NCBI GenBank assembly: GCA_023205875.1
Contig: CP060754.1
Span: 62,001 to 126,000 of the forward strand
Reading direction: 5' to 3'
Source: Chloropicon primus
Taxonomy: Eukaryota; Chlorophyta; Chloropicophyceae; Chloropicales; Chloropicaceae
DNA: 64,000 bases
Of the stretch, positions 7,704-9,263 are shown one piece after another. The position numbers and the translations under genes are program-made. The first letter of the stretch is position 1. Each line of letters starts with the position of its first letter. Under the pieces are notes generated by a model. It ran no database searches and was not told the DNA's origin. It worked only from the letters and a program-made list of their open reading frames with translations.

Positions 7704-9263
7704 ATGTCGCAAGGGACGGGAATGGTGGGAGGGCGGAGAGTGCAGCCCATTCAGAGTCTGAACCCTTACATGGGGGCGACGTGGACGATAAGGGCAAGGG
7801 TTGCGAACAAGAGCAACATGAGGACTTACAAGAGCGCCAAGGGGGACGGAAATCTCTTCAACGTGGAGTTCATCGACGAGGAGGGAACGAGAATCGAGGC
7901 CACGCTCTGGAGGGAGGTCGCCCAAAAGTACTTTGAAAACATCGAGGAGGGCAAGGTGTACTACATCTCCAAGGCGGGGCTCAAGCCCGCGAACAAGGCT
8001 TTCTCGTCGGTGCAGAACGACTACCAGCTCCTCATCTCGGACAGGACGGAGATCGAGGAGTGCAACGACGCCAGCGCCGAGCAGCTGCAGAAGGTCAAGC
8101 CCAAGCTCAACGTGACCAAGATAGGAGACCTCCCCCGCCACCTGGGGAGCAGGATGCTCCTGGACATCATCGGCGTGGTGGCGAGCGTTTCTCCCCTCGG
8201 ATCCGTCAAGCGCAAGGTGGACCAGAGCGAGCTTGCCAGGAGAGACCTCACCATCTTCGACACGAGCGGCAGGCAGGTCACTGTCACCATGTGGCAGACG
8301 CTCGCTTCCGAGGAGGGCGACAAGTTGGACAAGATGCAGACGGTAAGGAGTGACCCCTCGGCTCCCCCTTGGCTCGACTCGTCGTGTCGCTCACACGCAA
8401 ACGCTAACGCAAACGCACACACACACACACACACACTCTTCTCTGTATTTCTCTCTTTTCTTGCCGAGCAGGAGTACCCCATCATCGCCCTTCAGGGCGT
8501 CAGAGCGAACGATTACAACGGCGTCTCCCTCTCGACGGTGAGCAGGAGCACCGTTATCATCAACCCTTCCACGGATGAGTCAAGCGATGACTTTATCCCG
8601 GAGGCCAAGGAGCTCAAGGAATGGTTATCGCAGCAGGGCGGGAAGATCGAGTATCCTCACTGCGGCGCCGGGCTCGCCAACAACGGGAGAACCAGCCTGG
8701 GCGGGGCAGCGAACAACACCAGAGTCACCCTCCAGGACCTGAGAGAGAAGCCCGTACCAGCTGTGGGCACGAAGCCAGAGTACGTGAACACCTGGGCCTA
8801 CGTGAGCAACATCCAGCCGGACCAGACCCTGTACTACATGGCCGCGCCGGATGGATCGAACAAGAAGGTCGTCGCGGAGGGCGACAGGTACTACTCGGAG
8901 GGCACGGGGAAGCACTACGACAGCTTCATCAGGAGATATGTCATGAGGTGCGAGGTGATGGATCACACGGGCAACTTGACTTTCAACGTGTTCAACGACC
9001 AGGCCGAGGTGATCTTGGGATGCAAAGCGGACGAGATCGCAGAGTCCAAGGAGAGCAAAGACGCTGCCTACGACGTCACCCTGAAGAACGCCTTGCTGGT
9101 CCCCTACACATTCCGCGTGGCGTGCAAGCCGGAGGAGTACAACAACCAGACGAGGCTGAGGTTCGCCGCACAGAGCCTGAAACCCCTCAACTTCGTCGAG
9201 CAGAGCACCTACCTCATCGGGCAGATCGACAACCTTCTGCCAAAGGCCGAGGCCGCTCACTAG
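7704..9263 (+). CDS. RPA1: Replication protein A large subunit, short form without zinc ribbon
   Basis: Exons are 7704-8342 and 8472-9263, giving about 476 residues. The 129-nt GT-AG intron is a multiple of three and has no in-frame stop. It carries a (CA)n run. RPA1 binds single-stranded DNA in replication and repair. OB folds A (about residues 15-125), B (about 135-255) and C (about 310-475) are present in order. The protein starts at the linker before DBD-A (QPIQSLNPYM), so the N-terminal protein-interaction domain of canonical RPA1 is missing. In DBD-C the zinc-ribbon stretch reads YMAAPDGSNKK...YYSEGTG, where canonical RPA1 has four zinc-binding cysteines; none is kept. It is probably a specialised paralogue or a lineage-specific form. 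Confidence 0.88.
   Translation: MSQGTGMVGGRRVQPIQSLNPYMGATWTIRARVANKSNMRTYKSAKGDGNLFNVEFIDEEGTRIEATLWREVAQKYFENIEEGKVYYISKAGLKPANKAFSSVQNDYQLLISDRTEIEECNDASAEQLQKVKPKLNVTKIGDLPRHLGSRMLLDIIGVVASVSPLGSVKRKVDQSELARRDLTIFDTSGRQVTVTMWQTLASEEGDKLDKMQTVRSDPSAPPWLDSSCRSHANANANAHTHTHTLFSVFLSFLAEQEYPIIALQGVRANDYNGVSLSTVSRSTVIINPSTDESSDDFIPEAKELKEWLSQQGGKIEYPHCGAGLANNGRTSLGGAANNTRVTLQDLREKPVPAVGTKPEYVNTWAYVSNIQPDQTLYYMAAPDGSNKKVVAEGDRYYSEGTGKHYDSFIRRYVMRCEVMDHTGNLTFNVFNDQAEVILGCKADEIAESKESKDAAYDVTLKNALLVPYTFRVACKPEEYNNQTRLRFAAQSLKPLNFVEQSTYLIGQIDNLLPKAEAAH

What the first reader, a model, noticed from the sequence alone, without database searches (positions are those of the whole stretch)
7704..9263. 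RPA1 lacking every zinc-ribbon cysteine and the N-terminal domain
Canonical RPA1 DBD-C holds a four-cysteine zinc ribbon needed for fold stability and trimer function. Here the region reads YMAAPDGSNKK...YYSEGTGKHY with no cysteine at all, though the flanking OB fold is well kept. The N-terminal RPA70N recruitment domain is also absent, since the protein starts at the DBD-A linker. Either the genome has a second, canonical RPA1 (plants have several paralogues) or this lineage replaced zinc with another fold stabiliser. A zinc-free RPA would be a useful variant of a universal eukaryotic protein.
Basis: partly seen in the sequence, partly recalled or inferred. Interest (0 to 1): 0.75.

Follow-up and report, generated by a model that had tools for sequence, protein, structure and literature searches.

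The report
Zinc-free replication RPA1 in Chloropicon
A tiny marine green alga carries, besides a standard copy, a second RPA1 protein (the main single-stranded-DNA binder) that has lost the zinc-holding cysteines and the recruiting N-terminal domain, a kind of loss already noted in other green algae, and one that raises the question of how this protein works without its zinc.

Summary
Window 7704-9263 (+) is a two-exon gene (intron 8343-8471) for a 476-aa RPA1 with DBD-A, DBD-B and DBD-C, no RPA70N domain, and A, S, S, T at the four zinc-ligand positions. It is identical to NCBI's 'replication protein A [Chloropicon primus]'. No exon is missing: the ribbon aligns in place. The genome also encodes a canonical RPA1 (contig C6) with RPA70N and four cysteines; one RPA2 and one RPA3 were found. 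Trees place the window gene with RPA1B (the replication type in Arabidopsis) and the C6 gene with RPA1A/C. None of 34 green-algal RPA1B rows has four cysteine ligands; 32 lack both Cys2 and Cys4. A 2016 paper already states that green-algal RPA1B-like sequences lack a conserved C4 motif and that some lack the N-terminal domain. Not mentioned in the parts of it I read: where ligands are lost, the rest of the ribbon is unusually conserved (entropy ratio to the rest of DBD-C 0.57-0.67, against 0.86-0.89 where all four remain). Best reading: a working, S-phase, replication-type RPA1 whose ribbon folds without zinc, beside a zinc-bearing RPA1A/C. This is inferred, not shown.

The parts
7704..8342 (+). 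Exon 1 of RPA1B-type RPA1 (residues 1-213)
   Evidence: spliced product identical to P0002
8343..8471 (+). Intron, 129 nt, GT-AG, in frame and without a stop
   Evidence: the NCBI protein P0002 lacks it
8472..9263 (+). Exon 2 of RPA1B-type RPA1 (residues 214-476 and stop)
7743..8063 (+). DBD-A OB fold (residues 14-120)
   Evidence: PF01336/PF02721 matches; PDB sequence matches 8rk2, 1jmc (run on the unspliced translation)
8154..8564 (+). DBD-B OB fold (residues 151-244, split by the intron)
   Evidence: PF16900 match
8781..9215 (+). DBD-C OB fold (residues 317-461)
8835..8936 (+). Former zinc ribbon (residues 335-368) with A338, S342, S355, T358 in place of the four cysteines
   Evidence: conservation tests; predicted strands
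9192..9236 (+). C-terminal helix (residues 454-468), at the place of the trimerisation helix
   Evidence: AlphaFold2 model, pLDDT block means 74-77 here; equivalence to the trimer-core helix is inferred
7510..7517 (-). E2F-like site TTTGGCGC in the divergent promoter, 186 bp before the ATG
   Evidence: the consensus TTTSSCGC is recalled

Best explanation
The gene encodes the Chloropicon member of the RPA1B group, the RPA1 type that serves bulk DNA replication in Arabidopsis. It binds ssDNA through DBD-A, DBD-B and DBD-C and assembles with the RPA2 and RPA3 of the cell through DBD-C. In green-algal RPA1B, zinc ligands Cys2 and Cys4 were lost early, Cys1 and Cys3 later in some lines, until C. 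primus and its close relatives had none. The ribbon hairpins stayed and are now held by their own, newly constrained residues (about YYMAAPDGSNKKV...TxKHYDSFxRRY) instead of zinc. RPA70N was lost in the Chloropicon line, so recruitment through that domain is left to the zinc-bearing RPA1A/C paralogue. Shown: gene structure, paralogy, ligand loss, conservation difference, predicted fold. Inferred: assembly with RPA2/RPA3, ssDNA binding, the replication role, zinc-free stability, and the order of losses.
For: Trees with and without the ribbon columns group the window gene with land-plant RPA1B (100/100) inside a green-algal RPA1B clade (96/65 with the ribbon, 97/90 without), and the C6 gene with RPA1A/C (100/100). 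Of 34 green-algal RPA1B rows, 0 have four cysteine ligands; 142 of 142 other rows that cover the region have four or more Cys there. Non-ligand ribbon positions are more conserved than the rest of DBD-C in sets that lost ligands: ratio 0.57-0.67, permutation p<0.002, in three sets (one a subset of another); 0.86-0.89, p 0.06-0.23, in three sets with all four. AlphaFold2 gives DBD-C high confidence (pLDDT block means 88-95 for residues 311-450) with ribbon strands kept, also when every aligned row has at most one ribbon Cys. Six aromatic positions align with human ones (that these contact DNA is recalled). One RPA2 and one RPA3 were found. An E2F-like site lies upstream of all four RPA genes. 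Codon adaptation of RPA1B (0.604) is like that of RPA2 (0.630) and six MCM genes (0.551-0.675), above RPA1A/C (0.506). In Arabidopsis, group B serves replication (PMC4731521 passages).
Against: PMC4731521 (section 21) reports that human RPA1 zinc-finger mutants keep ssDNA binding and trimerisation but do not support replication, the opposite of a zinc-free replication paralogue. E2F-like sites are found at RPA1A/C too, so they do not single out RPA1B, and 2 of 6 MCM genes have none. Codon adaptation is weak evidence; with histones alone as reference the DBD part of RPA1A/C (0.496) falls inside the MCM range (0.490-0.585). AlphaFold2 may recall the RPA fold whatever the ligands. The conservation sets differ in size and depth, and the gappier RPA1A/C ribbon may be less well aligned. 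No expression, binding or genetic data were available here.
Confidence: 0.6

Rival explanations
1. Role swap: in green algae the zinc-bearing RPA1A/C became the replicative subunit and RPA1B, freed from that job, is a specialised ssDNA binder (repair, recombination, stress) that could afford to lose zinc and RPA70N.
For: Human zinc-finger mutants fail in replication (PMC4731521), so the zinc-bearing copy is the natural replicative one; the C6 gene also has an E2F-like site 100 bp before its first Met and a full domain set.
Against: With the combined reference, codon adaptation of RPA1A/C (0.506) is below all six MCM genes tested while RPA1B falls among them; RPA1B is the replication type in Arabidopsis; divergence to the nearest relative is similar for the two paralogues (78% for P0002-P0003, 75% for P0054-P0055), though whether these pairs are the same two species is unknown.
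Confidence: 0.25
2. The ribbon was repurposed: the conserved zinc-free hairpin is a surface that binds a partner, and the conservation reflects that interface rather than folding.
For: Charged residues K344, K345, K360 and R368 are kept in 15, 16, 15 and 16 of 16 rows; the ribbon window ranks 18 of 407 for conservation.
Against: A338, P339, G341, V346 and Y369, invariant in those 16 rows, look like turn and core positions (judgement, no structure); no partner is known to me.
Confidence: 0.1
3. Artefact: a missed exon carries the cysteines, or sequence or annotation is in error.
For: Frames in raw DNA can hide exons.
Against: The ribbon is present in place and aligns without a long gap; other metagenome proteins have the same residues; the NCBI protein is the same.
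Confidence: 0.02

Closest known systems
Green-algal RPA1B-like proteins (Aklilu & Culligan 2016, PMC4731521)
   Same: Same clade by my tree against land-plant RPA1B; no conserved C4 zinc motif in DBD-C; some (M. pusilla, V. carteri) also have a truncated or deleted N-terminal DBD-F (passages and section 21).
   Different: Chloropicon is not named among their algae in the passages seen; here all four ligands are gone; the conservation difference is not in the parts of the text I read (supplements not seen).
Land-plant RPA1B/RPA1D
   Same: Sister group in the tree; replication role in Arabidopsis.
   Different: All 6 land-plant RPA1B rows have four Cys in the ribbon segment; 5 of the 6 carry PF04057, P0024 does not.
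Canonical RPA70 of animals and fungi (8rk2, 4gop, 1l1o)
   Same: Same DBD-A, DBD-B and DBD-C folds, C-terminal helix, and six aligned aromatics.
   Different: They have a zinc ribbon and RPA70N; the window protein has neither.
Trypanosomatid RPA-1
   Same: Lacks the 70N domain (PMC5161316 passage).
   Different: Its zinc ligands were not examined here; a different lineage.

Membership tests
RPA1 (RPA70/Rfa1) | Tandem DBD-A and DBD-B OB folds | tested here: met
   Pfam, PDB sequence matches
RPA1 (RPA70/Rfa1) | DBD-C OB fold of the trimer core | tested here: met
RPA1 (RPA70/Rfa1) | Four-cysteine zinc ribbon in DBD-C | tested here: not met
   A, S, S, T at the four positions
RPA1 (RPA70/Rfa1) | N-terminal RPA70N (DBD-F) | tested here: not met
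   No PF04057 in the protein; the only genomic match found is in the C6 gene
RPA1 (RPA70/Rfa1) | Trimer with RPA2 and RPA3; ssDNA binding | not testable with these tools
   One RPA2 and one RPA3 gene found; needs biochemistry
Green-algal RPA1B-like group | Phylogenetic position with RPA1B, apart from RPA1A/C | tested here: met
Green-algal RPA1B-like group | No conserved C4 motif in DBD-C | tested here: met
   Window protein has none of the four; 0 of 34 green-algal RPA1B rows have C4
Green-algal RPA1B-like group | Role in bulk replication, as in Arabidopsis group B | tested here: inconclusive
   Codon adaptation and E2F-like site only

The most novel reading that the evidence does not exclude
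The main replicative RPA of Chloropicon, and perhaps of most green algae, runs without zinc: a re-fixed, strongly conserved ribbon core does the structural work of the metal. This would mean that the zinc requirement reported for human RPA in replication is not a necessary property of eukaryotic RPA, and that a eukaryote divides its RPA into a stripped replicative form and a zinc- and RPA70N-bearing checkpoint/repair form.
Probability: 0.4. Interest if true: 0.65.

Novelty: new member of a known kind. Interest (0 to 1): 0.45.

Why it matters
The zinc ribbon of RPA1 is reported as needed for replication in human RPA (PMC4731521). Here the paralogue expected to serve replication has lost it while the other paralogue in the same cell keeps it. 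That gives a natural test of what the zinc does and how a metal site can be replaced within a conserved fold, with graded states (CCCH, Cys1+Cys3, Cys3 only, none) among related sequences.

Tried and rejected
A missed exon with the cysteines: rejected, because the ribbon is present in place. An RPA70N for this gene elsewhere: the only genomic match found belongs to C6. A second RPA2 as dedicated partner: none beyond a 25%-identity match at E 0.11. Zinc sparing in oligotrophic seas: one literature search (listing only) showed nothing direct, and ligand loss is shared by trebouxiophytes such as Coccomyxa and Chlorella, so it is not special to marine picoplankton. Redox shielding (human RPA zinc-finger redox work seen only in reference lists) was not testable.

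Counting notes. Homolog searches scored only the 7,993 or 7,994 candidates sharing most words; one search lists 120 of 571. The ligand tally covers 176 of 179 proteins; P0017, P0038 and P0180 lack the region. Trees used 60 of 179. Several green rows are metagenome or transcriptome proteins without an organism name, called green-algal by tree position, and P0014, P0177, P0178 and P0179 (not in the trees) by similarity only. P0030 and P0033 (CCCH) sit on a long branch; PMC4731521 reports a CCCH motif in M. pusilla RPA1C and O. lucimarinus RPA1E, which it files under A/C, so these two rows may be of that kind; without them 32 of 32 rows lack Cys2 and Cys4. In one search my pattern failed to read Cys3 in P0013 and P0037 (both are Cys by eye); one search uses corrected states. 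The conservation sets were chosen by me, the 8-row set is a subset of the 16-row set, half of the trebouxiophyte rows keep Cys1 and Cys3, and sliding windows overlap. The four-of-four E2F chance figure (about 3e-6 for 300 bp) assumes evenly spread sites and was computed after the sites were seen. Searches used the unspliced translation; residue numbers in this report are those of the spliced protein.

Full report
What is there. The frame at 7704-9263 (+) holds one in-frame intron, 8343-8471. Spliced it gives 476 aa, identical to the NCBI protein 'replication protein A [Chloropicon primus]' (P0002). The genome held for this window has 17.58 Mb in 20 contigs, in keeping with the published 17.4 Mb, 20-chromosome C. 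primus genome (passages of PMC6731263). Pfam finds DBD-A, DBD-B and DBD-C but no RPA70N. In DBD-C the four cysteine columns read A338, S342, S355 and T358.

The other RPA genes. PF08646 matches two places in the genome: this gene and C6:1129468-1129917 (-). The C6 gene encodes 765 aa with RPA70N (the only PF04057 match) and the ribbon SYPACSLQRNGRQCNKK...GWCETCQQKC. Its N-terminal domain aligns with human RPA70N, including the RYR stretch. There is one match for RPA_C, i.e. RPA2, one for RPA3, and no second RPA2 of note. The cell therefore has two RPA1s and, as far as these searches show, one set of partners.

Which RPA1 is it. A 60-row tree, built with all columns and again without the ribbon columns, joins the window gene to land-plant RPA1B (100/100) within a green-algal RPA1B clade (96/65, 97/90) and places the C6 gene with RPA1A/C (100/100). 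[quoted passage not shown] section 21 read). The core of the finding is thus already in print for other green algae. Term look-ups in the main text of the two Chloropicon genome papers found no mention of RPA, and four literature searches gave no explanation for the loss.

How the ligands went. Of 34 green-algal RPA1B rows covering the ribbon (read; counts), none has four cysteine ligands. Two (P0030, P0033) read C, C, C, H; six keep Cys1 and Cys3; 21 keep only Cys3; five have none (P0002, P0009, P0174, P0176, P0178). All 142 other rows (6 land-plant RPA1B and 136 RPA1A/C, fungal and animal) have at least four Cys in the segment. On the ribbon-free tree Cys2 and Cys4 each need one change, Cys1 five and Cys3 three. 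Cys3 is kept in 29 of 34 rows although in 27 of those its partners at positions 2 and 4 are not cysteine. The two CCCH rows sit on a long branch and may be what PMC4731521 files under A/C (see the counting notes).

Not decay. In sets that lost ligands, the non-ligand ribbon positions are more conserved than the rest of DBD-C: entropy ratio 0.64 (16 prasinophyte-type rows), 0.57 (8 spread rows of the same set) and 0.67 (10 trebouxiophyte-type rows), with permutation p of 0.0018, below 0.0002 (0 of 5000) and 0.0016. In sets with all four it is 0.86 (6 land-plant B), 0.86 (12 fungi/animals) and 0.89 (7 Chloropicon-like A/C), with p of 0.23, 0.06 and 0.21. By sliding window the ribbon ranks 18 of 407, 27 of 410 and 19 of 410 in the first three sets, against 140 of 399, 100 of 340 and 253 of 338 in the others. 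The simplest reading is that side chains took over what the metal did; a new binding surface is a rival, and differences in set size, depth and alignment quality are a caveat.

Clues to function. TTTSSCGC, the E2F consensus as I recall it, occurs 2,427 times in the genome, against 1,620 for the pattern read backwards, and 5 times in the window, fewer than the 9.87 expected from shuffles. One site lies 186 bp before the RPA1B ATG and one 100 bp before the C6 gene's first Met; RPA2 has one about 100 bp before an ATG that I read by eye, and RPA3 one about 270 bp before its domain match. Of six MCM genes, three have sites 140-210 bp before the first Met, one has a site just inside it, and two have none. 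Against light-harvesting and histone genes together, codon adaptation is 0.604 for RPA1B, 0.630 for RPA2, 0.551-0.675 for six MCMs and 0.506 for RPA1A/C; with histones alone the gap narrows (0.524 for RPA1B against 0.448 for RPA1A/C, or 0.496 for its DBD part). This fits an S-phase, replication-type RPA1B but does not prove it. Against it stands the reported failure of human zinc-finger mutants in replication (PMC4731521).

Verdict. This is a real, conserved RPA1 paralogue without zinc ligands, a new member of the green-algal RPA1B-like group, with complete cysteine loss in the ribbon and no RPA70N. The zinc loss is known in outline. The conservation difference and the coexistence with a zinc-bearing RPA1A/C make a clean, testable question.

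Noticed in passing
window 6279-7376 (-): Deoxyhypusine synthase (PF01916, E 9.4e-125 for 6279-7379) lies head to head with RPA1B and shares the roughly 330-bp intergenic region that holds the E2F-like site.
   Followed up: partly
window 9649-10998 (+): CRT-like transporter (PF08627, E 4e-34) just downstream.
   Followed up: no
window 55310-55807 (-) and 56946-57437 (+): A head-to-head pair of chlorophyll a/b-binding protein genes (PF00504 matches).
   Followed up: no
window 40269-44048 (-): DEAH-type helicase frame with an R3H domain and ankyrin repeats between the two helicase domains, reminiscent of YTHDC2 (likeness recalled).
   Followed up: no
P0030, P0033: Two deep-branching rows from transcriptomes, placed with RPA1B, read C, C, C, H at the zinc positions; they may be an intermediate stage, or the CCCH kind that PMC4731521 files under A/C.
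   Followed up: partly
green-algal RPA1B rows, position of Cys3 (residue 355): Cys3 is kept in 29 of 34 rows although no row has all four cysteines; why a lone cysteine is conserved is unexplained.
   Followed up: no
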